In this document: positions 1,637-21,036 of the stretch, piece after piece
How the letters are laid out: each line of letters begins with the position of its first letter
Numbering within the stretch: position 1 is the first letter of the stretch
Assembly (NCBI GenBank): GCA_934454435.1
Contig: CAKSGA010000012.1
Span: 1-30,938 of the forward strand
Source of the DNA: an uncultured Oscillospiraceae bacterium
GTDB lineage: Bacteria > Bacillota > Clostridia > Oscillospirales > Ruminococcaceae
DNA: 30,938 nucleotides
Direction: 5' to 3'
Notes under the pieces: generated by a model
What the model was told of the DNA's origin: nothing
The model's input: only the letters and a program-made list of their open reading frames with translations
Database searches by the model: none
Made by a program: the position numbers and the translations under genes

Positions 1637-1948
1637 ATGCCAAAGACAATAGTTGACTCAGGGGAAATGAGGCGCCTTGCTGACAGGCTCGAGCGGCTCG
1701 CCGATGAATACCAGTACCTTTATGAGCGTGAGCTCTACGGGACGATAGTTGAAAATATTCGGCGTGCTTACAAGGGCATTGATGCAGAAGCGATGATACA
1801 TGGTCTGGAGGAATTCAGAAATGACTTCGCCCGGATAAAGTACACCGTTGATCAGTATGCTTCACATCTTAGGTTCGCCGCCAGAACATATGACGATATG
1901 CAGGCAGAACTTGCAGCAAAGGCAAATCAGCTGACCCGGGACGTCTGA
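1637..1948 (+). CDS. WXG100-type small protein, WXG replaced by YKG
   Basis: A 103-residue, mainly helical protein with the size and two-helix layout of ESX/WXG100 substrates. Its turn reads A-Y-K-G-I-D (near residues 44-49), where the paralogue at 2018 has A-W-I-G-V-D, so the signature Trp is replaced by Tyr. The two proteins align end to end without gaps and are about 50 percent identical by my hand count. A run of charged and hydrophobic heptads supports helices on both sides of the turn. I see no canonical C-terminal YxxxD/E export motif. It is the first gene after the cluster promoter; the start ATG has AGAGG upstream. WXG100 proteins are usually exported as helical dimers by an EssC-type ATPase, and one is encoded downstream. 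A heterodimer with the next gene's product is plausible but inferred. Confidence 0.85.
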   Translation: MPKTIVDSGEMRRLADRLERLADEYQYLYERELYGTIVENIRRAYKGIDAEAMIHGLEEFRNDFARIKYTVDQYASHLRFAARTYDDMQAELAAKANQLTRDV

Positions 1949-2017
1949 TCTTTTTGTAAAGTATCAAAGCGGCGCCTGCCGCAGAACAATAAAACACATC
2001 TAATGGAGGTAATTATC

Positions 2018-2329
2018 ATGGCAGATACCATAGTAACCACTGAATCCATGCGTTCTCTCGCAAGCAAGATCGAAAATCTTGCGTCTGAGTACCAGACACT
2101 TTACACGAACCAGCTTTACGGAACCGTAGCTTCCGATGTCAAGAAGGCCTGGATCGGTGTAGACGCAGACGCAGTTATAACACGTCTTGAAGGTTTCCAC
2201 AATGACTTCGACAACATCGTAAAGGTACTGAACCAGTATGTTGAGCACCTCAGAAAGGCTGCCCAGACTTACGACGACCAGCAGGAAAAATTAAGACAGG
2301 CAGCTAACACCCTTACACAGGACGTTTGA
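2018..2329 (+). CDS. WXG100-family protein with intact W-x-G
   Basis: A 103-residue paralogue of the preceding protein with the WIG form of the WXG turn (near residues 45-47), helical on both sides. An in-frame ATG at 2003 is part of the TAATGGAGG ribosome site. The real start is therefore ATG 2018, seven bases after GGAGG. It is expected to be an ESX-type secreted substrate or chaperone partner handled by the EssC-like ATPase at 9847. A 69-base gap separates it from the first gene, and a 21-base gap containing a strong AGGAGG site leads to the third. Equal length and gap-free similarity point to tandem duplication. Confidence 0.9.
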   Translation: MADTIVTTESMRSLASKIENLASEYQTLYTNQLYGTVASDVKKAWIGVDADAVITRLEGFHNDFDNIVKVLNQYVEHLRKAAQTYDDQQEKLRQAANTLTQDV

Positions 2330-2350
2330 TATTAAAGGAGGAAAACAACA

Positions 2351-2668
2351 ATGGCTAATTTAAGTATAGATTATAACGCCCTCAGCGCATGCGCAAGCTC
2401 CATGAAGGACGTAAACAACAAGCTCACCGAGAAGCTCCGCACCATTCAGACCGAGATGGGCGCAGTAAACACAGAGGACGTTTACTTCTCCACCGACGCT
2501 CAGGCTTGCAGGGAGAAGTTCGAGCAGATGGCAAACAAGCGTGTCCCCGAGTTTGAGGCAGTCATCAACGAGTACGTGAAGTTCCTTGAGGACGCTATCG
2601 CCGCATACCGTGAGACAAACAAGTCCCTCAGCAGCAATGTTGAGAGCAATGTAGACGCTTTTGTCTGA
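2351..2668 (+). CDS. Divergent WXG100-like small protein
   Basis: A 105-residue, all-helical protein, third of the small-protein set. It lacks Trp. At the hairpin position it has VYFSTDAQACREKF, resembling the W/F-x-S/G-x-A-x(6)-F pattern of WXG100 relatives. The N-terminal half starts with a short polar stretch and a helix containing many Asn/Lys/Thr. The C-terminal helix is followed by a Ser/Asn-rich tail. A very strong AGGAGG ribosome site, 9 bases upstream, suggests high translation. It is followed by a hairpin and T-run that may lower expression of everything downstream, which would suit a protein needed in excess. Membership of the WXG100 superfamily is inferred from length, helicity, position and the weak motif. 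Confidence 0.78.
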   Translation: MANLSIDYNALSACASSMKDVNNKLTEKLRTIQTEMGAVNTEDVYFSTDAQACREKFEQMANKRVPEFEAVINEYVKFLEDAIAAYRETNKSLSSNVESNVDAFV

Positions 2669-2691
2669 TAAATGAACATATGGTATCTGCC

Positions 2692-2745
2692 CGGCGGTGG
2701 TCAGTCCGCCGCCGTGGGTGGGTATCCTGAGATAATATTTTTTTT
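2692..2745 (+). terminator. Hairpin plus T8: possible attenuator after the WXG100 genes
   Basis: CGGCGG (2692-2697) pairs with CCGCCG (2706-2711) around an 8-base loop. Eight T follow at 2738-2745, about 26 bases beyond the stem. The wide gap makes this a poor classical terminator. Partial read-through would set a high WXG100 to machinery ratio. Confidence 0.4.
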
Positions 2746-2840: not shown

Positions 2841-2854
2841 ATCTGGTGAGGTTT

Positions 2855-5560
2855 ATGATAAAGAGGATAATTGCGGCAGTGCTCGCAGGTTCCCTGTGGG
2901 TCGGCTGTGTGCTGCCAAGTCTTACGGGCTGCTCCGGCGGCAAGAGTGATGACAGCTACACAGTAGCCGAGTGGCTCGACAAGGTAGAAACAGACTTCAA
3001 CATGCTGTATTTTACAAGTGAGGAGCCTTATTTCGCCAATGTCACAGCTGAGAACGAGGACTACGACACGGTTCAGATAGCCGCTGAATGGGGACTTGTA
3101 GATCCCAGCCAGGGGATCAGGCTCGCTGACAAGGTGACAAAGGAGTTTGCAGCTGATACGCTGGTAACTGCGATGGCGTTCGATTATGACGTTGACGCTG
3201 GCATTACCGACGCTGACAAGATTTCCGACCCGAGGGCTGCGGCGATAGCAGTCAATGAGGGCGTTTTCACCCTGGATGGCAGCGGTAAGTTCGACCCGAA
3301 AAAGACCCTTACCCGTGAAGAGGCAGACGTTGCAGCTGCGACTGCTCACGATAAGTGGACGCACCTTACATATGATGAATCTTTTGACAAGAGCGTTGTA
3401 AAGGAAGATATTATCAATCTGGGTGGTATTCCTGCAGAAAAATCAGAAGTAGCTCCTGCCATCTATACCATTGAGTATAGTGGCAATCTGAATGTGATTG
3501 ATGAAAATGGTCATTATGCAGACAACTCGACGAAAACACTTACATTTGCACCCGGACAGAATATAGGCCTAAAGGTCGGTTCTACCCTTACACTTCCAGC
3601 AGATTCGCAGACACCTACACCCTTTGCTGTAGTTGTTGACAGTATCACTGAAAATGCAGACGGTAGTACGACGGTTCAAACTCATAATGCTGACATGACT
3701 GATGTATATGAAAGCATAAATGTTCAGTTCAGTCAGCAGCTTAATATGGACGATGCTGTTGTATATGACATGGACGGAAACAGGCTCTCTGGCGGCGTTG
3801 AGCAGTCAGAAAATGTGAGGTATGCTGGAGGTAGTGTTCTTTCAACTGGTACAAGTGAGTATTCACGTGATTACCTTAAGGTGGATGCCAAAAGTTCCGC
3901 CAGTGGTAAAATCCAATTGATGGATGGTCTCTGGGTAACCTTTGGAAAGTCCGACAAAACAATTTCCGTGGGGGTCGAGGCAGAGAAAAAGGATGGCACA
4001 GGAAAAATAAAAGCTTCAGTCTGCGATGATCTGACAGTTAACCTGGATTTTGAGATAAGAGATGTTTCCATTGACGACCTGTGGAATGGTGGCAAATTCT
4101 ATGCCAGAATGGTGGCTTCTTTTACTGATAAGAAAACAGACTCTGTTGAATTTTCTTTGGCAGGTAATACCCTGGGCAAAGACAAAACAAAATTTGGGTT
4201 TGATGACCTTTCGCAGCTTTATGAGATGTGCAATGAGTTTGTTCAGACCGAAAAGAGCGCATTTGATAAGCTGAAGATTGAAAAGAATATTTATACGTTT
4301 GTAATTCCTACACCTTATGGTGATGTTCAGATACCGATCTCAGTTAAGGTATCGGTATCCGGAAAAATCACAGTAACAGTTGAAAATAAGGTCAGCAGTG
4401 GACTTGAATGGAATTACGGTAAATTCAGACCAATCACTGATCATGAATCATCTGCTACCACCGAACTTGAAGGTAAGTTTGAAGCATGCCTGTCTGCTGG
4501 TGTGGGTTGGGGCAAGTTTAATGTTCAGGTTATTAATCTTATGCTCGATCTTGGCATAGGCGGAAAGATCAATACTAAGATTTTCAAGCTTGATGCAGCC
4601 ACCGGCGGAATTCTTGAACAATGTGCGCTTGCAACTGGAATATTTGGCGGCGGATCAGGTGTAAATCAGGACGTTGTATCTTCTCCCGAAAATAATGTAC
4701 AGGCTTGCGTGGATGGCAAGTTGTACCCTGTAGTAAGATTGACTCTTTGTTCTAGTGAATCTCTTCTTGGTAAGCTTGGGTGCAGCATCTCCATCGACAT
4801 TGTCGGCGAATCATCACCGTTCCTTAATTGGCACCTTGAATCTGATAATGGGTTCGTTGATAATTGTACCAGAGAGCCGGGTATGAGTTATGACATTAAA
4901 GAAGGCAGCAATATTGAACTAACAACTCCTACTGTTACGCTTGCGGTGGGTCAGGATTATGATCAGCTTAGAGTAAGCACTCTTCCGAAGGGATATTCTG
5001 CTAAGGATTTGGTGTTTGAATCTGAGAATTCAAATATTGCTTCTGCAGAAAATCTTATCGGCACTGAATCCAAGCAAAAGGCTGAAATGAAGCGGTCAAT
5101 CAAGATCTTTGGTAACGAGGTTACTGATAAGTATTCCCTTACGATGTACAAAAAGTATGGTCACGATGATAATGCACAGGTTAAACTGACCGGCGTTGCA
5201 GATGGTGTATCCATTTTGAAGGTTTCTACTAAGGACGGCCTGTACTCTACCGAGTGCAAGATACTTGTAGGCAATGGCGGTATCAAGGAGCGTACTGCAA
5301 ATGCATTCGTGATCGAAACCTATTCATTGGTTCTCACACCTGGAGCAAGCAGTCAGATAGTTGTTAAGGCTGCCCCTGATGGCTACGATATGACAGATGT
5401 AACATTCAAGTCCAATGATGAGAGTGTTGCGACAGTTTCCACCAGTGGTACAGTTACAGCGTTAAGTACTGGCCAGACTTCGATCACAATTTCTACGACA
5501 GATGGTAAGTATACATCGTCGTGCATGGTATTTGTGAACGGTGGGGACTCTGCAGTATGA
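2855..5560 (+). CDS. Large surface lipoprotein with SLH-like and Big_2 domains
   Basis: A 901-residue protein beginning with a lipoprotein signal (MIKR, hydrophobic core, lipobox LTGC, lipidated Cys26). Residues about 35-165 resemble two degenerate S-layer homology repeats, the second ending in the typical F-D-P-x-x-x-L-T-R-E-E-A. The centre (about 170-680) is beta-rich and unrecognised. The C-terminus has two bacterial Ig-like (Big_2) repeats, including SNDESVATV. It is probably anchored outside the membrane and spans or binds the wall. I prefer ATG 2855 over the in-frame GTG 2846 because it gives the clean lipoprotein signal; GGTGAGG then sits close upstream. Base composition drops abruptly near 3365: 33 of 60 G+C before, 20 of 60 after. 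It is located inside the type VII cluster, so it may be a surface part of the machine or a cargo; its function is unproven. Confidence 0.82.
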   Translation: MIKRIIAAVLAGSLWVGCVLPSLTGCSGGKSDDSYTVAEWLDKVETDFNMLYFTSEEPYFANVTAENEDYDTVQIAAEWGLVDPSQGIRLADKVTKEFAADTLVTAMAFDYDVDAGITDADKISDPRAAAIAVNEGVFTLDGSGKFDPKKTLTREEADVAAATAHDKWTHLTYDESFDKSVVKEDIINLGGIPAEKSEVAPAIYTIEYSGNLNVIDENGHYADNSTKTLTFAPGQNIGLKVGSTLTLPADSQTPTPFAVVVDSITENADGSTTVQTHNADMTDVYESINVQFSQQLNMDDAVVYDMDGNRLSGGVEQSENVRYAGGSVLSTGTSEYSRDYLKVDAKSSASGKIQLMDGLWVTFGKSDKTISVGVEAEKKDGTGKIKASVCDDLTVNLDFEIRDVSIDDLWNGGKFYARMVASFTDKKTDSVEFSLAGNTLGKDKTKFGFDDLSQLYEMCNEFVQTEKSAFDKLKIEKNIYTFVIPTPYGDVQIPISVKVSVSGKITVTVENKVSSGLEWNYGKFRPITDHESSATTELEGKFEACLSAGVGWGKFNVQVINLMLDLGIGGKINTKIFKLDAATGGILEQCALATGIFGGGSGVNQDVVSSPENNVQACVDGKLYPVVRLTLCSSESLLGKLGCSISIDIVGESSPFLNWHLESDNGFVDNCTREPGMSYDIKEGSNIELTTPTVTLAVGQDYDQLRVSTLPKGYSAKDLVFESENSNIASAENLIGTESKQKAEMKRSIKIFGNEVTDKYSLTMYKKYGHDDNAQVKLTGVADGVSILKVSTKDGLYSTECKILVGNGGIKERTANAFVIETYSLVLTPGASSQIVVKAAPDGYDMTDVTFKSNDESVATVSTSGTVTALSTGQTSITISTTDGKYTSSCMVFVNGGDSAV

Positions 5561-5675: not shown

Positions 5676-6575
5676 ATGAACAAGAAGAAAGATGAGATAA
5701 AGACAAAAGTCGATGAACTTGAGAAGACCGAGCAGAAGTCTGCACGTCAGGATAAGGTCAAATACGGCCCCGGCCGCCGTGGAGTTACTGTCGGGGTAAC
5801 AGTCGGAGCATGCGCTGTACTTGTTGTCGGCGGATATTTTCTTGTTGGCAAGCTGGTGGACAGAAGCGCAGAAAATCAGACGTCAAATGCACCTGCGTCA
5901 AGCTATGACAGCGGAAGTTTTGCTCCGGGAGGAGTTTCTGGCAGTTCTGGTTCAGCGGACGATAATGTCAGCGGTGGGAATTCTTCTGATAACAGCAATA
6001 ATTCCTCCATTGCTCCTGATGCAAATAATGACTCCCCGAATGATGGGGAAATCATGACAGGCGCAGATGGTCTGCCCATCGATGCCCCTGACGCAGATCC
6101 GAATTCTCCTGCGAGCACGTCTTCACGAGATACCGGCGCACTGACCGATAGCGGTGCAGGCGCAGATCCTGACGAGTATGATCCGTCAAATCCTGGCTGG
6201 AGCGGCGGTTCGCTTATAGCACCGGACTTTGATAATGACATAATTCCTCCGTCCGATGGTGAAATAACGATGCCGACGACCTCCGGCTGGAATATTACGG
6301 TCCCTACAACAGGCTCATACACTGACCCTGACTATACTACTTCTCCCTCTACATCTGGTACAGGTTCATGGACGACTGCTGCGCCGCATACTACTGCGGG
6401 GACTACTAGGGCTTCAACTACTAAGGCTACAACAAAATCTCCATCGACAACCAAGGCAACGACAAAGTCTACGACGGAAAGCACTACATTTAGTGGAAAT
6501 CCTGCGCTTAAACCTCCTACTCATATAGTTATTGATGGCACGTTTGAGGGTAATATTGATGATTTTTTTGATTGA
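5676..6575 (+). CDS. Bitopic membrane protein with long Ser/Thr/Asp-rich outer region
   Basis: A 299-residue protein with a Lys/Glu-rich cytosolic N-terminus (about 1-35) and one membrane helix (about 37-58, valine/glycine rich). A long low-complexity outer part follows: first Ser/Gly/Asn/Asp/Pro, then a run of Thr with repeated TTKAT-like units. It closes with a short acidic tail ending in Asp-Asp-Phe-Phe-Asp. ATG 5676 is chosen because AGGAGG lies 7 bases upstream; the in-frame ATG at 5619 lies in the hairpin loop. No family is recognised. The layout is like a wall-spanning stalk or tether, and the Thr-rich segment could be O-glycosylated. It may occupy the place of a bitopic type VII component such as EssA or EssB, but no sequence similarity is visible. 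Confidence 0.82.
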   Translation: MNKKKDEIKTKVDELEKTEQKSARQDKVKYGPGRRGVTVGVTVGACAVLVVGGYFLVGKLVDRSAENQTSNAPASSYDSGSFAPGGVSGSSGSADDNVSGGNSSDNSNNSSIAPDANNDSPNDGEIMTGADGLPIDAPDADPNSPASTSSRDTGALTDSGAGADPDEYDPSNPGWSGGSLIAPDFDNDIIPPSDGEITMPTTSGWNITVPTTGSYTDPDYTTSPSTSGTGSWTTAAPHTTAGTTRASTTKATTKSPSTTKATTKSTTESTTFSGNPALKPPTHIVIDGTFEGNIDDFFD

Positions 6576-6593
6576 TTTGAGGACGTTGATGAT

Positions 6594-8717
6594 ATGAGAA
6601 ACTTCAAATTTATAAAGTTCCCATTAATAATTATGTTATTAATATCTATCATGCTTGGTTTGTTTCCACTGAGTATGTCTGCCAATGCCAAATTTACCCT
6701 TTTTAATTCAGGAACCTGGTGGGATACCCGTCAGGCTATTAGAATTTCTGTATATAACTTAACTGATGGTGTTTGTGAGGCTACAAGGGACTTCTTTTAC
6801 AATGGAAAGAAAAGGAAAAATACCAGTGGCGTACCGATGGGCTCATATGATCAATTTGATAATGATTTTACAAAAGCTCAAAACAATGGATATGATATTA
6901 TCCTATGTCAGGGTTGCAAGATAGACTACCTAAATGACTATTATCAATCAGGTCGTGATCTGGATAGCCTTGAATATTGTCAGATCGATAGCAACCAAAT
7001 GTCTACTTCATATTCCGATACTTCTGATGATATTTTTGATAGTCTAATATACTCATTGTCCCCCTTGAATTGCTTTGATCACTTCGGTGATGAGTATTAT
7101 TATGACGACTCTACTAGTTATACAGGGCGTCTTCATTCAATTGAAAATGCCAAAGTAATACAATCGTTGATAAATTGCTTGGGATATTATTTGGTTGAAA
7201 CAAAGTATGCTAAGGAAAACAATTTAACATTTCTTGATTCAAATTATATTCTGGTTTTTGAGCCAGTTTATTGGTTTTTAGACGCCTATCGTACAGAAAA
7301 TGATAAAGAAGTGCTCTTTTATGGGTCTGCAACTGAATGGGCTATCTATGCTCAAAAAAATATAGGGCATTATCAGATGGGAACGACTCGGAAAGGGCGT
7401 TCAATACATTCCACTATGGGAACACTTACTGCTGTTGCAGGTCCATTAACCTGCTATAGCCCCAAAAAACGATTTATTCCTATGAATAATGGAACTGATT
7501 ATATAACAATACAAGCTCACCCTGATAAGAAATCTTTTCAGACATGGTGGAATACAAAAAGCATATCCATGGATGCTAATACTGTTTCAGAAATCAATAA
7601 AAAGATTATTGAGGAAACAGGGGCTGACTATTTATTACCCAAGGATTTGTATGATATGTCATTTGAAATACAGAATTCTTCTTTTTTCACTGACACACAA
7701 GTTTTGCTGTCCTTCAAAGCCGAGTCTGACGGAAAACGTGCTTTGATTCCTTCATATGAGGATATGGAGAGCGGTGATTACTATGGTATTAAACTGACCT
7801 TAGAAACTCTGCCTGGAAGTGATATAAACCCTGGCAATATAGTGCTATATAGTGATGGCATGCCAGATAGCGAAACAGGCGGACAGATAGTTACTTATAT
7901 TTACGATAATTGGTACACTGGTACAAAAGAGGGCGTTTGGCAATTTGCTCTTCATGCTGAATCACCAGAAGGAAGGATTTCCTATAAATCAAATTCGGGT
8001 ACTCCAATTGATCCCGAAAGCGAAGATACCGATTATTCATTCGTAATAAAAATATCTGATCTTCGCTCTATGGTCGTTGTACCAGAAAACACCAAATCAA
8101 GCGACAAAGCCCCAAGCGGTTTCTGGCAGCCTTCAGGTGACATGTCCGGCTACTCGCCAAAACATGAAGCCAGCTGGAATACATATGTTGCCAACGCCTG
8201 GAAAACAGCGGAAGGCAAAGAAATGGTTTTCCTGACAAAGAAGGATTTCACTAAATCCATCACCATGTCAGGAACCAGCCCCGTATGCTACCCTAACATT
8301 GCGTCTGCGTATATGGACAGCAACGGCGAGCTGGTAACGAAGTCCGGCTACGGCATAGGAATTGACGGACATTATACTGTTGACGGTTCTTATGGTGATG
8401 TACGTGGAGGTTTCCAGAACGGCGTTGTGCTGTATCCTGAGTACGGATATGGGCTTGTGGGGTCCCTGATGGAACCCGATGGCAGCAGCGGAATGTACCT
8501 TGAGCAGAACAGCTACTCAAAGTACTATCGTGACGCAAGGAACTCTCTGTACAGCAGGGTGCATTTTACTCCGATATGGTACCCGGACGGCGAGTATAAC
8601 GTTCAGGTGTTCATGTTTGACTGCTGGACGCCGGTCGGTATGCTCTGGGACTGCCAGAAGTACACGGTACACATTAACGGCACCATGTACGACGACTGGT
8701 ACGTTACCAGAAATTGA
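6594..8717 (+). CDS. Secreted 707-residue protein, unknown, compositionally mosaic
   Basis: The protein has a clear signal peptide (MRNFKFIKF, hydrophobic core, likely cleavage after SANA near residue 32) and no other membrane segment, so it should be exported. The mature protein is rich in Tyr, Asp, Asn, Ser and Trp. I recognise no enzyme family. The gene is two-toned: the first 1.5 kb is strongly AT-rich (13 of 60 G+C at 6601-6660), and after about 8100 it matches its neighbours (36 of 60 at 8101-8160). This indicates replacement of the N-terminal three quarters by recombination, or a recently acquired module joined to a conserved C-terminal part. GAGGACG lies upstream of the ATG. It is followed after 26 bases by the pseudokinase gene. 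It could be a secreted effector or surface protein of the locus; function unknown. Confidence 0.8.
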   Translation: MRNFKFIKFPLIIMLLISIMLGLFPLSMSANAKFTLFNSGTWWDTRQAIRISVYNLTDGVCEATRDFFYNGKKRKNTSGVPMGSYDQFDNDFTKAQNNGYDIILCQGCKIDYLNDYYQSGRDLDSLEYCQIDSNQMSTSYSDTSDDIFDSLIYSLSPLNCFDHFGDEYYYDDSTSYTGRLHSIENAKVIQSLINCLGYYLVETKYAKENNLTFLDSNYILVFEPVYWFLDAYRTENDKEVLFYGSATEWAIYAQKNIGHYQMGTTRKGRSIHSTMGTLTAVAGPLTCYSPKKRFIPMNNGTDYITIQAHPDKKSFQTWWNTKSISMDANTVSEINKKIIEETGADYLLPKDLYDMSFEIQNSSFFTDTQVLLSFKAESDGKRALIPSYEDMESGDYYGIKLTLETLPGSDINPGNIVLYSDGMPDSETGGQIVTYIYDNWYTGTKEGVWQFALHAESPEGRISYKSNSGTPIDPESEDTDYSFVIKISDLRSMVVVPENTKSSDKAPSGFWQPSGDMSGYSPKHEASWNTYVANAWKTAEGKEMVFLTKKDFTKSITMSGTSPVCYPNIASAYMDSNGELVTKSGYGIGIDGHYTVDGSYGDVRGGFQNGVVLYPEYGYGLVGSLMEPDGSSGMYLEQNSYSKYYRDARNSLYSRVHFTPIWYPDGEYNVQVFMFDCWTPVGMLWDCQKYTVHINGTMYDDWYVTRN

Positions 8718-8743: not shown

Positions 8744-9850
8744 ATGCTGTACTGCAAAAAATGCGGCGCTGTCGTGGGTGAGAACGACATGTTCTGCACC
8801 TCATGCAGCGCACGTCTGGACAGCAGTTCAGTAGTAAACAAGTCCGGCTTGCGCCAGATAGCAGCCGAAAGACAGGAGTTCAGTGCGGACGCTGCTACGT
8901 CTGAAACTGATCTTACCGGCTTCAGCGTGATGGGAATGCGGCTGACTGACAAGCTGTTTTCACTGATGGGCTCCGACTACTACCGTGCGGTCAACGCCAA
9001 CGGTGAGGAGTGCATCCCGCTGATGATGCGGCACATTATCTTTCCGTCAGCGGTAGACTGCGACTGTGCGATGCTGAATAACGGCGCCGACCCTTCGGCA
9101 GCAGGTGCACTTTCCAGACAGTTCACTGAGATGCTCTCAAAAGAGTGCCTGTCGTTTTCGGCGGCGTGTGCTTCTGCCGGTGTGCCTTCGATTAATTACC
9201 GCTGCGAGGTAATGTATTCGGAGCTGAACAACATCTATCACATTTTCATTCTGATGAATGACGCTGTACCGCTTCCGCTGTATCTCAGAAAAGAGCAGCT
9301 GACTGTCCGGGACGCCCTGATGATGGGTGGAAGCATTTCGGAAGAGCTTATCAGACTCGACAAGAACAACGTGCATTACGGTGCTTTTTCCGACTGCATG
9401 ATCTTTGTTTCCGGCACCGGAAATCAGCGGAAGATCTACCTTGACTGCCGCCTGTCGATGTGCTATGACAGATTTCTGCCGATGAGCAGCTACATGTCAT
9501 ATTTCCGGCAGTATTTTTCTCCAAGACGCAGGAATTACGAGGTCTACAGCCTTGGAATGCTGTTGTATCGCATGCTGAGCCAGTTCCGGCACCCGTACAT
9601 AAATCACCGTGGAATTGCGACATCTGCGGAGTTCCTCCAGGCAGAAAGACTGCGTGGCTCGATGGCTGAGCCTTACCCTCCGGACTGCCTGCAAAATACA
9701 TTCGGAACGGTGATAAGGGACGCAATATCAACGTCGCAGCATGAGCTCACGATGAGTGAGTTCAGCCGTGTGCTGATAAATTCGCTCAATTATGTTCAGG
9801 CTGGTGAGCTGAACAGAACAATAAAACTTGATGGGACGGTTGGTAAATGA
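8744..9850 (+). CDS. Zinc-ribbon pseudokinase of the type VII locus
   Basis: A 368-residue cytosolic protein. It starts with a zinc ribbon (C4-x2-C7, C18-x2-C21), then a linker, then a Ser/Thr-kinase-like fold (about 65-350). In the kinase C-lobe the helix motif YSLGMLLYRML is clear. The catalytic residues are gone: HRD is H-Y-G (211-213), the catalytic-loop Asn is Cys, DFG is D-C-R, and the N-lobe VAIK-like strand reads IPLMM. It should therefore be catalytically dead. T7SSb systems carry a pseudokinase domain in EssB/YukC, but that protein also has a membrane helix, which is missing here. A role as docking or scaffold partner of the adjacent EssC-like ATPase is inferred from the fold and the ATGA overlap (stop 9848-9850, next start 9847). 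A run of five G provides the ribosome site. Confidence 0.8.
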   Translation: MLYCKKCGAVVGENDMFCTSCSARLDSSSVVNKSGLRQIAAERQEFSADAATSETDLTGFSVMGMRLTDKLFSLMGSDYYRAVNANGEECIPLMMRHIIFPSAVDCDCAMLNNGADPSAAGALSRQFTEMLSKECLSFSAACASAGVPSINYRCEVMYSELNNIYHIFILMNDAVPLPLYLRKEQLTVRDALMMGGSISEELIRLDKNNVHYGAFSDCMIFVSGTGNQRKIYLDCRLSMCYDRFLPMSSYMSYFRQYFSPRRRNYEVYSLGMLLYRMLSQFRHPYINHRGIATSAEFLQAERLRGSMAEPYPPDCLQNTFGTVIRDAISTSQHELTMSEFSRVLINSLNYVQAGELNRTIKLDGTVGK

Positions 9851-14551: not shown

Positions 14552-14803
14552 ATGAATAAGATACTTACTGAAGTCTATTTCCCGTCGCTTTCCTGCTCAT
14601 ATGACATATACATTCCTGACAGGGTGAGGTTTTACCAGGTAGCGGACATGATAGAGCGTGCCGCTTCCCGGCTCACCCATGGGCGGTATATCGTCACCGG
14701 CTGTGCAGTTCTCTGCGACAGGGACACAGGGCTCGTTTATGACTCTAACCGCACCGCCGAGGAAGTCATGCTCCACAGCGGGTCAAGGCTCATGATAATA
14801 TGA
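14552..14803 (+). CDS. yukD: YukD/EsaB-like ubiquitin-fold protein
   Basis: An 83-residue protein with the beta-grasp pattern of the WXG100 ubiquitin-like family. An N-terminal strand with an expected ubiquitin-like turn is followed by a helix (about 27-43) and a C-terminal NRTAEEVMLHSGSRLMII segment, typical of the last strands of YukD/EsaB. In T7SSb this small cytosolic protein is essential for, or regulates, secretion and works beside EssC. A strong AGGAGGTG ribosome site precedes the ATG. Its presence right after the EssC gene confirms the type VII identity of the left half of the cluster. It contains Cys residues and no C-terminal diglycine, so ubiquitin-like conjugation is not suggested. 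Confidence 0.85.
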   Translation: MNKILTEVYFPSLSCSYDIYIPDRVRFYQVADMIERAASRLTHGRYIVTGCAVLCDRDTGLVYDSNRTAEEVMLHSGSRLMII

Positions 14804-14868: not shown

Positions 14869-15741
14869 ATGAAAATACTGAAAAACCGTCTTGTCATCGG
14901 CTGCATCTGCATAATCATGGCATTTGCGATCGGATTTCTTGCCGTGCCGAAGATCACGGAAATGCTCAACGAGAAGATATCTGTTGTAGTAGCTAACCAG
15001 GACATTCCCAAGGGAACAGAGCTCACCGTTGACATGTTCAGGAATATCCGTATGAGCAAGGGCGACCTGCCGTATGCAGAGGGCGAGTACTATAATTTCA
15101 AGTCCAGCGCCGAGGTCCCCAGCAACATGATCACCAATATCAAATCACTGTTTACTGAGCAGGGCGGGAAGTACTATGCTTCCACCGAGATACGCTCGAA
15201 CGATATCATCACCACCGGAAAGGTTTCCACGTCCAATGTCTACAAGGACGAAAACCTGCGTGAGCTCGGTGCTAACCAGTATGCGGTGGCAGTTAGCGTG
15301 AATACGATAGCCGAGGGTATCGCTGCAAAGGTCATGGCGGGAGACATCGTAATGCTGCTTATCTACGACAAGGACACAGGAATAGAGAAGGTTGACCCGT
15401 CCCTGATGTATGTTGAGGTGCTGAATGTAATCAACTCAGACGCTGCCGAGATCAACGATTCCCAGAGCGGCGCTTCTACCGGCATACCCAGCGTCGTTAC
15501 GTTCAAGGCGAATATCGACCAGTCCATCTACCTGGCAAAATACGAGAACACGGCGAATATCCACCTGGCACTTGTTTCCCGTGGAGATGAAGCCAAGAAG
15601 GCAGAGCTGCTGAAAAAGCAGAACGAGTACCTTTCCAGGAACTCCATCGTAAACCGTGAGGAGTATCAGGCGTTCCGTGACATGCTCTACAGCCCTTCGG
15701 AGCAGACGCAGGCTCCGGCAGGAGAGGAGGCTGCTCAGTGA
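14869..15741 (+). CDS. cpaB: CpaB/RcpC-like Tad pilus assembly protein (SAF domain)
   Basis: A 290-residue protein with a short cytosolic N-terminus and one membrane helix (about 8-27). The outer part begins with a SAF domain (about 38-105; VVVANQDIPKGTELTVDMF is the family signature). Flp pilus CpaB/RcpC proteins have this layout; in Gram-negatives they help the secretin, and in monoderm Tad loci they are kept with a less clear, outer-face role. It has a good AGGAGAAAG ribosome site and lies 65 bases after the YukD-like gene with only a small hairpin (CCGGA-TCT-TCCGG at 14818-14830) between. Its stop overlaps the next start as GTGA. It is the first pilus gene after the type VII genes. Confidence 0.88.
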   Translation: MKILKNRLVIGCICIIMAFAIGFLAVPKITEMLNEKISVVVANQDIPKGTELTVDMFRNIRMSKGDLPYAEGEYYNFKSSAEVPSNMITNIKSLFTEQGGKYYASTEIRSNDIITTGKVSTSNVYKDENLRELGANQYAVAVSVNTIAEGIAAKVMAGDIVMLLIYDKDTGIEKVDPSLMYVEVLNVINSDAAEINDSQSGASTGIPSVVTFKANIDQSIYLAKYENTANIHLALVSRGDEAKKAELLKKQNEYLSRNSIVNREEYQAFRDMLYSPSEQTQAPAGEEAAQ

Positions 15742-16487
15742 GCGCAAGGATCATCTGTATCTGGGGAAGTCCCGGGAGCGGAAAAAGTACGACGGCGCTT
15801 GCACTTGCGGCGGTTCTTGCGGAAAAAAAGCTGAACGTTGCAGTGTTCAACGGCGACAAGCTGGTGCCTGCGCTTAAAATGTACTGCCCGACCCTCCAGA
15901 TAGACAGCAACACTTCTATCGGGCCGCTGCTGATGTCGGGACGTTATGACGATGCAATTTTTGCCGGCAGACTTATAGTCCACCCGAAATGCGAGTACAT
16001 CAGTTTTCTCGGCATGGCGCCCACGGACACCTACATAACCTACAACGAGTTTGAGCGTTCCAACACGGTCGCAATGCTGAACAAGATGGCGAAGCTGAAC
16101 GACTATGTTATTATTGACGGCACATCTAACCCTCTGGACGACTCCATGACGCTGCTTGGTCTGGAGCTCGGCGATGTGATAATTCGTCAGATCACCGCCG
16201 ATAACAAGGGCATTCTGTACCAGGACTGCGCACGAATGATCTATCGTGAGGACAAGTACCGCTACGACTCCCACATAACCATACTCGGAGATGTAACGGA
16301 GATAAGCCCGGTTTCCGAGGTCATGTCGGTGAGCGGCAGATATGAGTATGTACTCAACCATGCAAATGAGGTCGCAGACAAGTTCATAGCCGGCGAGTTG
16401 CTGAAGGATATGCGAAGCATGGCTGGCAGGGCGTTCGAGAAGCAGATACGTGCGCTGGCAAAACAGGTGGAGGGTAAGAATGGCTGA
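15738..16487 (+). CDS. CpaE/TadZ-like ParA/MinD-family ATPase
   Basis: A 249-residue P-loop protein with Walker A GSPGSGKST near residues 10-18 and hydrophobic strands typical of the SIMIBI ATPases. In Tad systems the CpaE/TadZ protein is a ParA-like factor that places the pilus machine; many carry an N-terminal receiver domain, which is absent here. The Walker A lacks the usual deviant first lysine (KGGxGKT), so dimer-dependent ATPase behaviour may differ. The start is GTG 15738, overlapping the CpaB stop by 4 bases and preceded by GGAGAGGAGG. It overlaps the TadA gene by 8 bases. Position between cpaB and tadA supports the role; sequence alone would allow another MinD-like protein. Confidence 0.82.
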   Translation: MSARIICIWGSPGSGKSTTALALAAVLAEKKLNVAVFNGDKLVPALKMYCPTLQIDSNTSIGPLLMSGRYDDAIFAGRLIVHPKCEYISFLGMAPTDTYITYNEFERSNTVAMLNKMAKLNDYVIIDGTSNPLDDSMTLLGLELGDVIIRQITADNKGILYQDCARMIYREDKYRYDSHITILGDVTEISPVSEVMSVSGRYEYVLNHANEVADKFIAGELLKDMRSMAGRAFEKQIRALAKQVEGKNG

Positions 16488-17820
16488 TCTCCAGAGCTTT
16501 CTGCGTGCAAAGCAGGGAATAAACAGTTACAATGACCTGCTTGTCACGGTGCAGAATTACATGTCAAACACCTATGAGAATCTGCTCTCCTCAGAAATGA
16601 GCGAAGCGGACTCGAAACTGGTAAAGGACTACATCAGGCAGTACCTTGTCACCCATACGATAAAGCTGGGCGACATGACGGAGGACGAGCTCACCGCCAA
16701 GCTGTACAGTGATATGGCGGAGTATTCGTTCCTGACCAAGCTGCTTAAAAACGCAGAGAAAATGCACCTTGAGGAGATCGACATAAACTCCTGGGAGGAC
16801 ATCGACCTTATCGTTTCCGGGCACCGTTACAAGTCGCCGGAAACGTTCAGCTCGCCGCAGCATGCAATAGATATCGTAAGAAGAATGCTCCAGGCGAACG
16901 GCTCGGTCATTGACGACGGAAAGCCGCATGCGCTGGGTTCCCTTGCGAAGAACATTCGTATCACGGCGCTGAAAACGCCGCTGCTGGACGATGAAGTCGG
17001 TATCGCCGCTTCAATAAGAGTGGTAGGGAAAAGCACTCTTTCAAAGACCAAGCTAGCCCAGGATACGGCGACCGTGGGAATGCTCGACTTCCTTTCCATC
17101 GCAGTAAAATACGGAATAAGCGTCTGCATAGCCGGTAATACGGGCTCAGGTAAGACATCGACCGCAAGCTGGCTGATGTCAACGCTGCCGGACTCAAAAC
17201 GTATCTACACCATTGAAGAGGGAAGCCGTGAGCTGGACCTTGTCCGCCGTGACGCTAACGGAAAGATAACGAACAGCGTTGTGCATACCCTTACAAAGTC
17301 CAGCCTTGACAAAGCGAACGAGGTAACACAGGAAAACCTGCTGGACTATGCCCTGAGATTTAACCCCGATGTTATCTGCGTCGGAGAGATGAGAAGCCGT
17401 GAGGCGTTCGCCGCACAGGAAGCAGCGAGGACCGGACATACGGTTATCACGACCATTCACTCCAAGACCGCCGCCGGCGCCTATATGCGAATGACGACTC
17501 TTGCAAAGCGTGCGTACGAATTCTCAGATGAAACGCTGATGAAGATGATGGTGGAAGCATTCCCTGTTATCGTCTATCAGCGCCAGCTTGAGGATACTTC
17601 GAGAAAGATAACCGAGATAATCGAGGGGGAGGACTACGTAAACGGTGTGCTGAAATACCGTGTGCTGTTCAGGTACGTGGTCGATGATAACTCCCAGGTA
17701 AATGCAAACGGAAAGGCTGTCATTGTAGGACATTTTGAGAAGGTGGAGGGAATTTCAGAGAAGCTCCGCAACGAAATGGTACAGAATGGCGCCCCGAAGC
17801 GTTTCGCAGATTTTTTCTGA
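16480..17820 (+). CDS. tadA: TadA/CpaF secretion ATPase
   Basis: A 446-residue member of the VirB11/GspE superfamily, the hexameric motor of Flp pilus assembly. Walker A is GNTGSGKT (219-226). Walker B is VICVGEMRS, followed by the His box G-H-T-V-I-T-T-I-H-S. The N-terminal part (about 1-200) is the usual TadA N-domain. I chose ATG 16480, with GGAGGG 7 bases upstream, rather than the in-frame GTG at 16450. The gene overlaps the CpaE-like gene by 8 bases and is followed by tadB after 15 bases. It acts at the inner membrane face with TadB and TadC. No secretin is expected in a monoderm and none is seen. Confidence 0.95.
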   Translation: MADLQSFLRAKQGINSYNDLLVTVQNYMSNTYENLLSSEMSEADSKLVKDYIRQYLVTHTIKLGDMTEDELTAKLYSDMAEYSFLTKLLKNAEKMHLEEIDINSWEDIDLIVSGHRYKSPETFSSPQHAIDIVRRMLQANGSVIDDGKPHALGSLAKNIRITALKTPLLDDEVGIAASIRVVGKSTLSKTKLAQDTATVGMLDFLSIAVKYGISVCIAGNTGSGKTSTASWLMSTLPDSKRIYTIEEGSRELDLVRRDANGKITNSVVHTLTKSSLDKANEVTQENLLDYALRFNPDVICVGEMRSREAFAAQEAARTGHTVITTIHSKTAAGAYMRMTTLAKRAYEFSDETLMKMMVEAFPVIVYQRQLEDTSRKITEIIEGEDYVNGVLKYRVLFRYVVDDNSQVNANGKAVIVGHFEKVEGISEKLRNEMVQNGAPKRFADFF

Positions 17821-17835: not shown

Positions 17836-18801
17836 ATGTTCTGGATCGAGGTCCTGGTCACAGCGTTTCTTGTAGCCGGGATAATTCTGGTGTTCGGGCT
17901 GAACCGTAAGACGTTCAGGGATTTCTTCTACGATGTCAAGACCGACACTAAACAACAGATAAAGAAGATCCGCCAGAATAAGCATATCTCCATGAAAAAA
18001 CAGGTGGATATGCTCCGGGGAAAGAACCGCAAGAACTTTCTGGTGCGCAGCTTCAACGAGGCGTCCTCAATATTGAAAGACACTCACCAGGAGCAGCGCA
18101 TAAAGGGAATTTACATTCTCAGTGTGATATGCGGTGCTTTCGGGCTGGTCATCTCGGCGATATTCGGAAACCCGTTCCTGGCTCCGCCGCTGACTATCGG
18201 CGCTGCACTGGTACCTGTGTGGCTCGTCAAGCTGACGGCCGCCCAGAACATGAAGCAGCTCAACGATGAGCTCGAGGTTGCCCTGTCAGGAATTACGATG
18301 TCGTATATCCGTAACAGCAACATAATCATGGCGGTAGAGGAGAATATCCCCTACATGAACGGCACGGTCAAGTACGCATTCACAAGGTTCGTTAATGAGA
18401 GCCGACTGATCAACTCAAATGTTTCGATAGGCATACAGAAGCTGCGAATGGCGATAGATAACGACACGTTCCATGAATGGTGCGATGCTATATATCAGTG
18501 TCAGAGCGACACGGCGCTGAATGTCACGCTGTTTCCGATAGTAAATAAATTCTCTGAAACAAAGAGCATTCAGGCGGAACTTGACACGCTGATGATGGTT
18601 CCATTCAAGGACACCATCTCCGTGGTGGTTCTTGTAATTCTGAGCATTCCGCTGATGTACCTGATAAACCCTGAGTGGTATGCGCTGCTTACGGAAACTG
18701 TTGGCGGCAAACTGGTGCTTTCGGGGGTCGCAGTAATAATCATATTTGCAATAAATAAGGCAATAGGGCTCACAAAGCCTATCAAACACGGGGAGAAGTG
18801 A
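17836..18801 (+). CDS. tadB: TadB-like pilus platform membrane protein
   Basis: A 321-residue protein of the type II secretion F family. It has one N-terminal membrane helix (about 2-22), a basic cytosolic stretch, a hydrophobic hairpin (about 95-135), a cytosolic helical bundle, and two C-terminal helices (about 255-310). TadB and TadC form the platform that couples TadA to pilin extraction. AGGAGG lies 9 bases before ATG 17836; a nearer ATG at 17828 is in another frame. It is separated from tadC by one base. Assignment to TadB rather than TadC rests on order (tadA-tadB-tadC) and the length of the basic N-terminal region. Confidence 0.9.
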   Translation: MFWIEVLVTAFLVAGIILVFGLNRKTFRDFFYDVKTDTKQQIKKIRQNKHISMKKQVDMLRGKNRKNFLVRSFNEASSILKDTHQEQRIKGIYILSVICGAFGLVISAIFGNPFLAPPLTIGAALVPVWLVKLTAAQNMKQLNDELEVALSGITMSYIRNSNIIMAVEENIPYMNGTVKYAFTRFVNESRLINSNVSIGIQKLRMAIDNDTFHEWCDAIYQCQSDTALNVTLFPIVNKFSETKSIQAELDTLMMVPFKDTISVVVLVILSIPLMYLINPEWYALLTETVGGKLVLSGVAVIIIFAINKAIGLTKPIKHGEK

Positions 18802-18802: not shown

Positions 18803-19768
18803 ATGGCAGATCTACAAAATCTAAATGCCAGGGTAGTCCTGCTGCTGCTCGTGGTTTCGGCGCTTCTGGCGTACGGGCTGTACCAGGTCGCAACCGAGTT
18901 CATAAGCATACCAAGCTCGGCGGCACGCAAGGCCATTCTTTCAATGAAAAAGACCCGCAGCTCCATTTCCGAAACGCTGACTATTCCGGCGGCAAACTTC
19001 CTTGCGGGCAGAATTCATCTTAATGCTGAAAGGCACAGCACTCTTGAAAAGAAGCTGTATTCCGCTGACATACAGTACACGCCGGAGTTCTTCGTGGCAA
19101 AGTCCATATCAGAGGGAGTGCTTGTTTCGCTGTTCTCGATACCGGTTTATTTCATCGGACCGCTTATGGGCTTTGTTTTTGGTCTGCTTGGAATTGATCA
19201 GACGTTCCTTGCCGTGCTGAATGTTATCATGCCGGTGGTTGCAATGCTGTGTATTGTCATGGGAATTATGGTGTATGTCAAGAGAATTCAGGAGCTCGAT
19301 GAGATCATACGCAAGAAAAGTGAGAAGATCGATGGCGACCTGGTCCTGTTCTCCAGCACGATAAAGCAGCAGCTTGCGGTTTCACGTGATGTCATGAAGA
19401 TACTCCAGAGCTACCGCAAGGTATGCAGCCCGGAATTCACTCATGAGCTCGACAAGACGATAGCCGACATGAAAACCGGTAACTATGAAACTGCGCTGCG
19501 CCACCTTGAATCCAGGGTGCCGAGCGTTGGGCTTTCTGAAATAATACGGGGACTTCTCTCTGTAATGAGAGGCGACGACCAGCGTGGATACTTTGAAATG
19601 CTGACCCATGACCTTTCCGTAAAATCCAAGGAGGAGCTGAAGCGTGCTGCGCTGAAGCGTCCTGACAAGCTGAAACCGGTTACGGTGCTGCTGATGGTCG
19701 GGTTCATGGCGATGTACCTTTATGTCATCATCTTCCAGATTGTGGAACAGATGCAGACCCTATTCTGA
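18803..19768 (+). CDS. tadC: TadC-like pilus platform membrane protein
   Basis: A 321-residue protein, second T2SSF-family member, equal in length to its neighbour. It has an N-terminal membrane helix (about 10-30), a central pair (about 110-160) and a C-terminal helix (about 300-320). The cytosolic region between them includes the helical bundle typical of the F domain. It starts one base after the tadB stop, with GGGGAGAAG as ribosome site. It probably forms the hetero-complex with TadB over the TadA hexamer. It is followed by a 61-base gap before the pilin genes. Confidence 0.9.
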   Translation: MADLQNLNARVVLLLLVVSALLAYGLYQVATEFISIPSSAARKAILSMKKTRSSISETLTIPAANFLAGRIHLNAERHSTLEKKLYSADIQYTPEFFVAKSISEGVLVSLFSIPVYFIGPLMGFVFGLLGIDQTFLAVLNVIMPVVAMLCIVMGIMVYVKRIQELDEIIRKKSEKIDGDLVLFSSTIKQQLAVSRDVMKILQSYRKVCSPEFTHELDKTIADMKTGNYETALRHLESRVPSVGLSEIIRGLLSVMRGDDQRGYFEMLTHDLSVKSKEELKRAALKRPDKLKPVTVLLMVGFMAMYLYVIIFQIVEQMQTLF

Positions 19769-19779
19769 CAGAATTCTCT

Positions 19780-19796
19780 CGCCGACTAGAGCGGCG
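19780..19796 (+). other. Small hairpin between tadC and the first pilin-like gene
   Basis: CGCCG and CGGCG pair around a 7-base loop in the 61-base gap; no T-run follows. It could protect the 5' end of a processed pilin mRNA. No convincing promoter is seen here. Confidence 0.35.
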
Positions 19797-19829
19797 TTGG
19801 AATATATAAATTAAGTGGAGGTTCTTATT

Positions 19830-20072
19830 ATGAAGCAAAAGCTGACAACAAAGCTCTGCATGCTCCGGGCAGCAGCAGAGAAAAGACTTATTCCCAACAG
19901 GGGCGAGGGTTATGTTGATACCCTTATCAAGATACTTATCGCAGTAGTTGTAGGCGCAGTTTTACTGGGTCTGCTGGTTGCGCTTATGAATGCTATATTC
20001 CCTGAGCTCCAGACCCAGATCATGCAGATGTTCAACGGCGGCGGTTCATCAGCTCCGGCATCTTCGACATGA
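19830..20072 (+). CDS. Small pilin-like membrane protein (DUF6133-like)
   Basis: An 80-residue protein with a basic leader (about 1-26) followed by RG-EGYVDTLIKIL and one long hydrophobic helix, then a short Met/Gly/Ser tail. The Gly followed by a hydrophobic helix with an acidic residue at +5 resembles the cleavage site of type IV/Flp prepilins (G before position 1, Glu5), here with Asp5. It matches my memory of the DUF6133 family of Clostridia. ATG 19830 is used; the earlier in-frame GTG 19815 is part of the GTGGAGG ribosome site. Its position directly after tadC and its small size make it the best candidate for the major pilin. It ends with an ATGA overlap into the next gene. Confidence 0.82.
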   Translation: MKQKLTTKLCMLRAAAEKRLIPNRGEGYVDTLIKILIAVVVGAVLLGLLVALMNAIFPELQTQIMQMFNGGGSSAPASST

Positions 20073-20527
20073 TAAAGCGCCGCAGTTCGCTCCGCAGACT
20101 ACGGCAGAACTGCGGAGAAATGTACATCGACACCGTGATAAGCGTTTTTGTTATAATGGTATTCATGGCGCTTATCATGGCGTTTCTGCCGGTCTTTATG
20201 CAGAAATATCAGCTTGACATGGCGGCTCAGGACATCGCCCGGAGCATCTCGGTTTCCGGCGTCATAACTCCGCAGGACGCAACTGCGCTCTCGCAGGAAT
20301 ACAACATGACGATAGACCGTGTAGAGATAACTCCCGCCGCAGATGCAGAGCTAATGACTGTGGCTGACGGTCAGCGAATTCAGCTTGCAGACAGCTTTAC
20401 GGTCACTGTCTATTCTCACAGGGAGGTCGGCGTCGGCGGAATTACCGGACCGGCTTCAATAGATATTTCTTCGACGGCAAAGGGAAGGAGTGAGGTTTTC
20501 TGGAAAGAAATGGCGATCACTCCATAA
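20069..20527 (+). CDS. TadE/DUF4320-like minor pilin
   Basis: A 152-residue protein with a basic leader ending in NCG, then EMYIDTVISVF and a single hydrophobic helix (about 25-47), followed by a mixed alpha/beta outer domain. The G-E-x-Y-x-D pattern copies that of the preceding small pilin-like protein, so both are likely cut by the same prepilin peptidase. The family appears to be DUF4320, TadE-like proteins of Firmicutes. The outer part contains a region with beta strands and a GVGGITGP loop. It overlaps the previous stop by 4 bases. An AAGGAG site near its end (20485-20490) probably serves the next gene. Confidence 0.8.
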   Translation: MIKRRSSLRRLRQNCGEMYIDTVISVFVIMVFMALIMAFLPVFMQKYQLDMAAQDIARSISVSGVITPQDATALSQEYNMTIDRVEITPAADAELMTVADGQRIQLADSFTVTVYSHREVGVGGITGPASIDISSTAKGRSEVFWKEMAITP

Positions 20528-21036
20528 GGGCGGTTCTCAGAAAGCTCCGCCGAAACACCGGCGCAGCGATGATGAAAACGCTGATAATACTTATGTTCCT
20601 GGCGATACTGGTGGGGTTTACCTATCAGATATTCGTGGTGTATACCACGGCTAACAACGTAAGCACAGCAGTTCAGCGTTCCATCATGACTGTGGCGTCT
20701 GTGAACATGCCTGATCTGTTCGACTCTTTCAAGGAGGGCGGCGCAGAAGTGTCCGACCTTACAAAGCTGGTCACTGCAAAGGAACTGAGCGAAGATCTCT
20801 GCGAAGAACTTGGGCTGGAAAGTACAGCAACGGAGCTCATAAAGCCATCTTCAACCGGTGGCTGGTTCTACCGCATTCTGGACCTTGAAGTCAAGGCGGA
20901 GAACCTTGCGGCAGGTTCTGGTACGGTGCATTACACAGCGGACTTCACACTGGAGATCCCGGTTGCAGAGTACTGGAGCTTCGGCTCGTTCAAGATACCG
21001 ATGCACGTTCAGGCTAAGTACACGAACAAATACTAA
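20500..21036 (+). CDS. Third pilin-like protein (TadE/TadF-like), probable CTG start
   Basis: From the first ATG (20569) the protein is 155 residues and begins inside the pilin core helix, leaving no leader. The frame stays open back to 20494 and encodes a basic stretch, V-L-R-K-L-R-R-N-T-G-A-A-M-M-K-T. This aligns with the leader of the previous protein, S-L-R-R-L-R-Q-N-C-G-E-M-Y-I-D-T. The only reasonable start in that stretch is CTG 20500, nine bases after AAGGAG, giving about 178 residues. The rest is one hydrophobic helix and a helical/beta outer domain, as in TadE/TadF minor pilins. The +5 residue is Lys rather than Asp. The conservative start is 20569. The gene is followed immediately by the cluster terminator. 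Confidence 0.72.
   Translation: MERNGDHSIRAVLRKLRRNTGAAMMKTLIILMFLAILVGFTYQIFVVYTTANNVSTAVQRSIMTVASVNMPDLFDSFKEGGAEVSDLTKLVTAKELSEDLCEELGLESTATELIKPSSTGGWFYRILDLEVKAENLAAGSGTVHYTADFTLEIPVAEYWSFGSFKIPMHVQAKYTNKY

What the first reader, a model, noticed from the sequence alone, without database searches (positions are those of the whole stretch)
1637..21036. Type VII (ESX/Yuk) module and Tad pilus motor joined in one apparent operon
WXG100-type genes, an EssC-type ATPase and a YukD-like protein are followed without a terminator by cpaB, a cpaE-like gene, tadA, tadB, tadC and three pilin-like genes. All lie on one strand between one good promoter (1565-1593) and one strong terminator (21039-21073). 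The standard T7SSb membrane parts EsaA, EssA and EssB are not visible. This suggests a hybrid machine in which a pilus platform replaces or serves the missing channel, for example to move WXG100 proteins or the large secreted proteins across a thick wall. I cannot say whether this arrangement has been described.
Basis: partly seen in the sequence, partly recalled or inferred. Interest (0 to 1): 0.9.

Follow-up and report, generated by a model that had tools for sequence, protein, structure and literature searches.

The report
Secretion and pilus genes joined
A Clostridia-like bacterium carries one run of genes in which a protein-export machine (type VII secretion) is mixed with a pilus-building motor (Tad); such neighbours were already known from other versions of the export machine, and this further version, with an adaptor-like protein of its own, makes a working link between the two machines more likely.

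Summary
In detail: 17 co-directional genes (1637-21036) encode three WXG100-like proteins, an EssC above its NCBIfam cut-off, a YukD-fold protein and a Tad set, with no terminator at the junction. The pairing itself is published: Garrett et al. 2024 report Tad genes always next to T7SSg and T7SSh, link unknown; I re-found T7SSg-like loci in five sampled genomes. The window is not T7SSg: its EssC has an FHA-like part and sits in another clade, and no DUF5050 protein was found. New here: (1) a Ruminococcus MAG (G442) carries the same Tad lineage (100/100 support) with an EssC from a different clade (joint clade rejected, p=6e-42), in permuted order; (2) both loci share a zinc-ribbon pseudokinase without a membrane helix, related to kinases of T7SS loci and recalling EssB's kinase domain; (3) a Tad-type secreted protein lies among the T7SS genes. 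Tad neighbours occur on three separate EssC branches, yet in 79 of 87 EssC loci none was seen in the stretch checked. Best reading: a new T7SS variant with a dedicated, functionally coupled Tad apparatus and a pseudokinase adaptor. Physical fusion of the two machines is untested.

The parts
1637..1948 (+). WXG100-like protein A
   Evidence: WXG100 13.9 bits, below cut-off; TIGR03930 18.5, below cut-off
2003..2329 (+). WXG100 protein B with a W-I-G motif
   Evidence: PF06013 28.0 bits, cut-off 27.3
2351..2668 (+). WXG100-like protein C
   Evidence: NF035934 55.6 bits, below its cut-off of 100; relatives lie in many EssC loci, often behind essC-yukD
2846..5560 (+). 904-aa ORF (start perhaps 2855): hydrophobic N-terminus with LTGC (lipoprotein-like, by eye), SLH and Big_2 domains; T7SS-type companion
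   Evidence: relatives in 7 EssC loci, one weak (27 bits) and one by the Big_2 part only; none in the Tad-only loci shown
5676..6575 (+). single-helix protein with a long Ser/Thr/Pro-rich part; function unknown
   Evidence: helix at 58-76 of the longer ORF; no Pfam match
6594..8717 (+). 707-aa protein with N-terminal hydrophobic helix whose C-terminal 125 residues recur in proteins of Tad loci
   Evidence: hits in 12 of 16 Tad-only loci fetched with surroundings (matched region shown for 9), in no Tad-free EssC locus
8744..9850 (+). zinc ribbon plus pseudokinase (called KinL here), no membrane helix by hydropathy; shared with G442
9847..14538 (+). EssC/TsxC ATPase with N-terminal FHA-like part
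   Evidence: TIGR03928 909 bits; FHA at E 0.05 or better in 9 of 11 members, the window itself at 15.9 bits, below the cut-off of 20.7; profile matches B. subtilis YukB 9qks
14552..14803 (+). YukD/TsxB-type ubiquitin-like protein
14869..15741 (+). CpaB/RcpC
   Evidence: PF16976 33.3 bits; 30% to G442
15738..16487 (+). TadZ/CpaE-like ATPase
   Evidence: 43 related clusters down to E 2e-47; 50% to G442
16480..17820 (+). TadA-type ATPase
   Evidence: PF00437 92 bits; 68% over 66-455 to G442
17836..18801 (+). TadB-like platform protein
   Evidence: 42% to G442; no family model
18803..19768 (+). TadC-like platform protein
   Evidence: 48% to G442, whose protein shows a weak T2SSF match, 16.7 bits
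19830..20072 (+). Flp-type pilin-like protein, GEGYVDT
   Evidence: PF19629 56.9 bits
20069..20527 (+). pilin-like protein, GEMYIDT
   Evidence: PF14208 60.5 bits
20569..21036 (+). pilin-like protein with N-terminal helix
   Evidence: weak similarity to genes in place (about 20-30 bits)
21031..21075 (+). intrinsic terminator, read by eye
440..1180 (-). LytTR regulator beside the operon; possible regulator
   Evidence: PF04397 55.6 bits; the G442 locus also begins with a LytTR protein

Best explanation
This is a further type VII secretion variant of Clostridia in which the T7SS core (WXG100 proteins, FHA-bearing EssC, YukD) is encoded together with a dedicated lineage of Tad pilus apparatus. 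Shown: gene content, order, the second locus, the tree conflict. Inferred: the two machines are made together and work at one place. The pilus parts build a short filament or piston through the wall that makes contact or clears a path, and EssC exports WXG100 proteins and any partners. KinL, a cytosolic pseudokinase, is taken to hold the FHA part of EssC, as the EssB/YukC pseudokinase domain does in T7SSb, and to tie it to the Tad base, in place of the missing EssB.
For: One strand, mostly tight spacing, no terminator at the junction. G442 has KinL-cpaB-tadZ-tadA-tadB-tadC-pilins-kinase/DUF5050-EssC on one strand. Tad of window and G442 form a clade, 100/100, while their EssC do not (AU p 5.9e-42): two EssC lineages beside one Tad lineage. 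KinL in both has lost the HRD and DFG motifs kept by the related kinases of T7SS loci and is predicted to fold as a kinase. The YukC pseudokinase binds the YukB FHA region and is called the hub of T7SSb (PMC9600267, passages only). A Tad-type and a T7SS-type accessory gene stand in one run. Tad was found in 8 of 87 distinct EssC loci, on three separate EssC branches (fewest changes of state 3). Exact shared contig lengths for 3 of 7 close EssC clusters; chance mean 0.002.
Against: In 79 of 87 EssC loci no Tad gene was seen in the stretch checked, so T7SS cores usually seem to do without. In one order sample EssC (28 of 394) and TadA (53 of 394) co-occur in only 4 genomes, as chance would give (about 3.8). 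KinL partners were not tested; the two KinL are only 26% identical. In two of the eight loci (L212, L213) Tad is convergent, so not co-transcribed, and in one (G818) EssC stands about 9 kb from the Tad-YukD-DUF5050 block. Only one other genome with this Tad lineage was seen in context. Intermediate TadZ relatives at 33-36% (L204, L205) have no EssC in the 20 kb fetched. The window lacks the DUF5050 protein of the other Tad-linked loci.
Confidence: 0.5

Rival explanations
1. Two independent machines under one regulator. Tad pili hold the cell to a neighbour or surface, and T7SS exports toxins or other cargo at that time; they share a promoter and a niche but no parts.
For: Most sampled EssC loci and most TadA-bearing genomes show the halves apart. 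LytTR regulators flank both KinL loci. Garrett et al. name shared regulation as an option (PMC11217815). Convergent Tad in L212 and L213.
Against: A Tad-type gene inside the T7SS part and a KinL beside EssC in one locus and beside cpaB in the other fit closer coupling better.
Confidence: 0.35
2. Physical hybrid: the Tad platform replaces the missing EsaA/EssA/EssB parts, and the pilus piston drives T7SS substrates across the wall.
For: No EssB family match among the operon's proteins, and 0 of 5 Tad-linked genomes over cut-off; one Tad lineage beside two EssC lineages.
Against: Several T7SS subtypes are described with neither these parts nor Tad genes (PMC11217815). In most EssC loci sampled here no Tad is in sight, though their other parts were not catalogued. 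No prepilin peptidase was found in the window.
Confidence: 0.15
3. Chance neighbours: a Tad cluster landed beside a T7SS operon more than once.
For: Only 8 of 87 loci; Tad clusters are patchy, and one (L204) lies next to a very large ORF of the kind that I recall from conjugative elements (inference).
Against: From 53 of 394 TadA-bearing genomes and a 15-kb neighbourhood in about 2.3 Mb some 0.1 case is expected in 87 loci (my rough estimate; genomes of the class sample are larger and may hold more Tad), against 7 within the stretch first fetched; permuted order with the same partners in G442.
Confidence: 0.08

Closest known systems
T7SSg (Garrett et al. 2024, PMC11217815; own sampled loci L215, L216, L217, L219 and, with EssC set apart, G818)
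   Same: WXG100, YukD-like protein and EssC encoded beside a Tad set; in L216 all on one strand
   Different: the T7SSg ATPase lacks FHA and TsgL (DUF5050) is present; window EssC has an FHA-like part and lies in another clade, no DUF5050 found; order of genes differs
T7SSh (same paper, Results part read)
   Same: Tad genes adjacent; kinase-like TshM
   Different: by the paper TshC lacks FHA, TshM has a C-terminal membrane helix and an EspG-like TshG is present; KinL has no predicted helix
T7SSb (Yuk/Ess)
   Same: FHA-bearing EssC, YukD, WXG100, a pseudokinase
   Different: EsaA, EssA, EssB families not seen in the locus; pseudokinase without membrane helix and with a zinc ribbon; Tad genes present
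Tad pili of Clostridia (e.g. L098-L105)
   Same: cpaB-tadZ-tadA-tadB-tadC order, DUF6133/DUF4320-like pilin genes, P707-type secreted protein
   Different: no EssC or KinL in the ordinary loci shown; TadZ only 20-28% identical, 33-36% in L204 and L205
G442 locus (L203, Ruminococcus sp. MAG by the name of P0167)
   Same: KinL, same Tad lineage, EssC, one strand
   Different: EssC of another clade, order permuted, extra kinase-DUF5050, prepilin peptidase and two-component genes in the locus; the contig ends just after EssC, so YukD and WXG100 genes could not be sought there

Membership tests
T7SS in general | EssC/EccC ATPase | tested here: met
   TIGR03928 909 bits over cut-off 778
T7SS in general | WXG100 protein | tested here: met
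   one of three over Pfam cut-off, narrowly
T7SS in general | YukD-like ubiquitin-fold protein | tested here: met
   through relatives and model, not by the window protein's own Pfam scan
T7SSb | EssB/YukC, EsaA, EssA | tested here: not met
   no such match among the 17 operon proteins in Pfam, nor in NCBIfam for 16 of 17; the rest of the host genome is not held
T7SSg | Tad genes adjacent | tested here: met
T7SSg | ATPase without FHA | tested here: not met
   FHA at E 0.05 or better in 9 of 11 members, best 8e-8; the window's own match is below cut-off; profile positions 109-180 match Rv1747 chain 6cah, an FHA domain by recall
T7SSg | TsgL DUF5050 protein | tested here: not met
   no match in six frames of the window
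T7SSg | ATPase in the T7SSg clade | tested here: not met
   well separated from the T7SSg-like loci in the trees
T7SSh | EspG-like TshG | not tested
   no model of TshG was searched
T7SSh | ATPase without FHA | tested here: not met
   as above
Tad pilus | TadA ATPase, CpaB, pilins | tested here: met
Tad pilus | TadB and TadC | tested here: inconclusive
   homology to genes in place, no model above cut-off
Tad pilus | prepilin peptidase | tested here: inconclusive
   none found in the window (two of six queries were wrong ORFs); present in the G442 locus; host genome not held
Tad pilus | filament on the cell surface | not testable with these tools
   needs microscopy
EssB-like pseudokinase | kinase fold with lost catalytic motifs | tested here: met
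   relation to EssB itself was not tested
EssB-like pseudokinase | membrane helix and outer domain | tested here: not met
   no helix by hydropathy

The most novel reading that the evidence does not exclude
A composite secretion machine: a Tad platform and pilus are structural parts of a type VII secretion system, held to the FHA part of EssC by a zinc-ribbon pseudokinase, so that more than one EssC lineage can be plugged onto the same Tad base.
Probability: 0.2. Interest if true: 0.92.

Novelty: new variant of a known kind. Interest (0 to 1): 0.62.

Why it matters
How T7SS substrates cross the thick wall of Bacillota is, to my knowledge, open, and the authors who noted Tad genes beside T7SSg and T7SSh left it undecided whether that was coincidence. 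A further pairing, with different EssC lineages beside one Tad lineage and a shared pseudokinase, argues against coincidence and names a protein (KinL) on which the link can be tested.

Tried and rejected
A genome-contig scan with EssC gave only two loci, 36% and 34% identical, without Tad in the stretch. A scan of viral contigs with the TadZ alignment found no relative. The host genome is not held. A search for repeats upstream of the operon gave only short two-copy or imperfect matches. I first took the small ORFs before EssC in L215 and L219 for TshM-like kinases; alignment and Pfam showed DUF5050, so I call these loci T7SSg-like. That the ATPases of L215-L219 lack FHA I infer from their length and from matches that begin at query residue 217 or later; no FHA scan of them was run. 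One further length match (7215, P0184 with P0122) I set aside as chance, since that EssC is only 31% identical to the window's. The DUF5050 count (8 of 8 records against 0 of 80) used a profile built from four of the Tad-adjacent loci, and rests on two EssC lineages. L218 (G818) first counted as Tad-free; a wider fetch showed cpaB to DUF5050 some 9 kb upstream of EssC on the same strand. This was the only Tad-free locus that I checked farther out, so 79 of 87 is an upper limit. Rescanning all 88 records with T7SSg-type Tad queries added no locus. The TadA-only tree gave the window-G442 pair 0.97 support, so I joined four proteins per locus. The group tested was named after a first tree had been seen; its model was the simple one (LG+G4). 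The TadZ search finds only relatives sharing exact words, so the gap below 45% is partly a limit of the search: relatives at 34-36% exist.

Rows dropped: L138 is the same place as L203; L162 is G002, and not from the samples, and entered the tree as L002; L234 and EssC ORFs under 1200 aa were left out of the tree (110 rows); one search used 36 of these. One search used the window and 16 Tad loci; the short Tad loci L042 and L163-L171, the cut L207 and the distant T7SSg-type Tads were left out, as were the TadA hits that I did not fetch.
Full report
What is there. Seventeen genes run in one direction from 1637 to 21036: three WXG100-like genes, a 904-aa SLH/Big_2 protein, a single-helix protein, a 707-aa protein with an N-terminal helix, a zinc-ribbon pseudokinase (here KinL), EssC, a YukD-like gene, cpaB, a tadZ-like gene, tadA, tadB-like and tadC-like genes and three pilin-like genes. 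EssC passes the NCBIfam cut-off (909 against 778 bits), CpaB and two pilin genes pass Pfam cut-offs, TadA matches T2SSE at 92 bits. The YukD-like protein has no Pfam hit of its own, but 18 of 23 aligned proteins match PF08817, and the model (pLDDT 95.6) fits ubiquitin folds, EccD domains among them. kinL-essC, cpaB-tadZ, tadZ-tadA and pil1-pil2 overlap; yukD-cpaB is 65 bp with a ribosome site and no terminator. A 186-bp gap after the third WXG gene holds a hairpin and a later run of T, so expression of the WXG genes may differ.

What is known. Garrett, Higginson and Palmer 2024 (PMC11217815; I saw the abstract, found passages, part 2 of 3 of Results, its first subsection and the Discussion) describe T7SSc to T7SSj. 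They state that a full set of Tad genes lies next to T7SSg in all organisms, that T7SSh too is next to Tad genes, and that it is unclear whether this is linkage or coincidence. Seven searches of the held library showed no other paper on the pairing in the listings that I saw; I opened only two papers, and only open-licence papers are held.

Survey. With window EssC as query I found matches in 28 of 394 genomes of one order, 35 of 297 of one family and 30 of 391 of one class; the samples overlap. I fetched surroundings of 87 distinct loci (88 records, up to about 8 kb on each side, some cut by contig ends; 86 from the samples and G002) and found Tad genes in 7: G442, four loci with a short ATPase (L215, L216, L217, L219) and two with convergent Tad (L212, L213). 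A wider look at G818 found the same set some 9 kb upstream of its EssC, making 8 of 87, and confirmed full cpaB-tadC sets beside L212 and L213. L216 shows cpaB, tadZ-like, tadA, tadB, tadC, three pilin-like genes, YukD, DUF5050, EssC and WXG100 on one strand, as T7SSg is described; L217 and L219 show the same order up to EssC. In the order sample TadA occurs in 53 of 394 genomes; four genomes have both, about what chance gives, three on different contigs and one (G191) some 1.2 Mb apart. So pairing is not general but recurs in certain lineages. On the EssC tree the pairing needs at least 3 changes of state (4 when G818 was coded as Tad-free); gain and loss cannot be told apart.

The second locus of this kind. 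In L203 (G442; its EssC is P0167, named Ruminococcus sp. at NCBI) the order on one strand is LytTR regulator, GHKL kinase, prepilin peptidase, a Ser-rich single-helix protein, KinL, cpaB, tadZ, tadA, tadB, tadC, pilins, a kinase-DUF5050 protein, EssC. Its TadZ, TadA, TadB, TadC are 50, 63, 43 and 52% identical to the window's in the trimmed alignments, above all 15 other Tad loci compared, and the pair forms a clade with 100/100 support. Its EssC is only 32% identical and lies elsewhere in the EssC tree; holding both EssC groups together costs 736 log units, p-AU 5.9e-42 (36 of 110 rows, simple model). Thus one Tad lineage stands beside two EssC lineages. The TadZ search gave 43 clusters down to E 2e-47, then three at 24-32%; intermediates at 34-36% exist, in L204 and L205, without EssC in the stretch fetched. 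The same search of 396 genomes of the family met a TadZ of 50% or more in G442 alone, so this kind is rare among the genomes held. Among the seven closest EssC clusters and the seven closest TadZ clusters, three pairs share an exact longest-contig length (23613, 20373, 23854; chance mean 0.002), which I read as shared contigs.

Mixing of genes. The last 125 residues of the 707-aa protein recur in proteins of Tad-only loci: 12 of 16 such loci fetched with surroundings give a hit, the matched region being shown for nine; no Tad-free EssC locus has one, and neither has G442. The 904-aa protein has relatives in seven EssC loci, one weak and one by the Big_2 part alone, and none in the Tad-only loci shown. 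So a Tad-type gene stands among T7SS-type genes in the first half of the run.

How it most likely works. Shown: gene content, order, recurrence, tree conflict, loss of kinase motifs. Inferred: joint expression; KinL as link between EssC and the Tad base; a filament or piston that makes contact or a path through the wall while EssC exports WXG100 proteins. The rival of two machines under one regulator remains strong. That EssB-family genes were not over cut-off in 5 Tad-linked genomes is no proof of replacement, since several T7SS subtypes are described without EsaA, EssA and EssB and without Tad.

Verdict. Real, partly known, and a new variant: not T7SSg by FHA, DUF5050 and EssC clade, not T7SSh by FHA. 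The new evidence is one Tad lineage beside two EssC lineages and the shared pseudokinase.

Noticed in passing
window 2846-8717: G+C falls to 0.40 in the 707-aa gene and 0.45 in the 904-aa gene, against 0.49-0.54 from kinL onwards; possible later arrival of these genes.
   Followed up: no
L212, L213, L240, L241: An FHA-type, full-length EssC, sister to the T7SSg-like clade, with PP2C phosphatase, kinase-DUF5050, YukD and WXG100, facing a convergent full Tad set of the T7SSg kind; I could not match it to a named subtype.
   Followed up: partly
88 EssC locus records: DUF5050-like proteins occur in all 8 Tad-adjacent records (7 distinct loci) and in 0 of the 80 others; G818, counted among the 80, has both farther upstream. 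The window has none: a possible but not universal marker of Tad-linked T7SS.
   Followed up: partly
window 440-1180 and L203 2-553: LytTR regulators lie at the start of both KinL loci.
   Followed up: no
G301 C2 and C3, G138 C32 and C33: Like TadA matches at like places on two contigs of one genome, one of them only 3273 bases long, suggesting several Tad copies that assemble poorly.
   Followed up: no
window 405-431: Strong hairpin with T runs on both sides, a likely two-way terminator between the ORF at 114-398 and the LytTR gene.
   Followed up: no
window about 30147-30225: Short ORFs on both strands read like a translated tRNA gene (impression from recall; ARAGORN not run).
   Followed up: no
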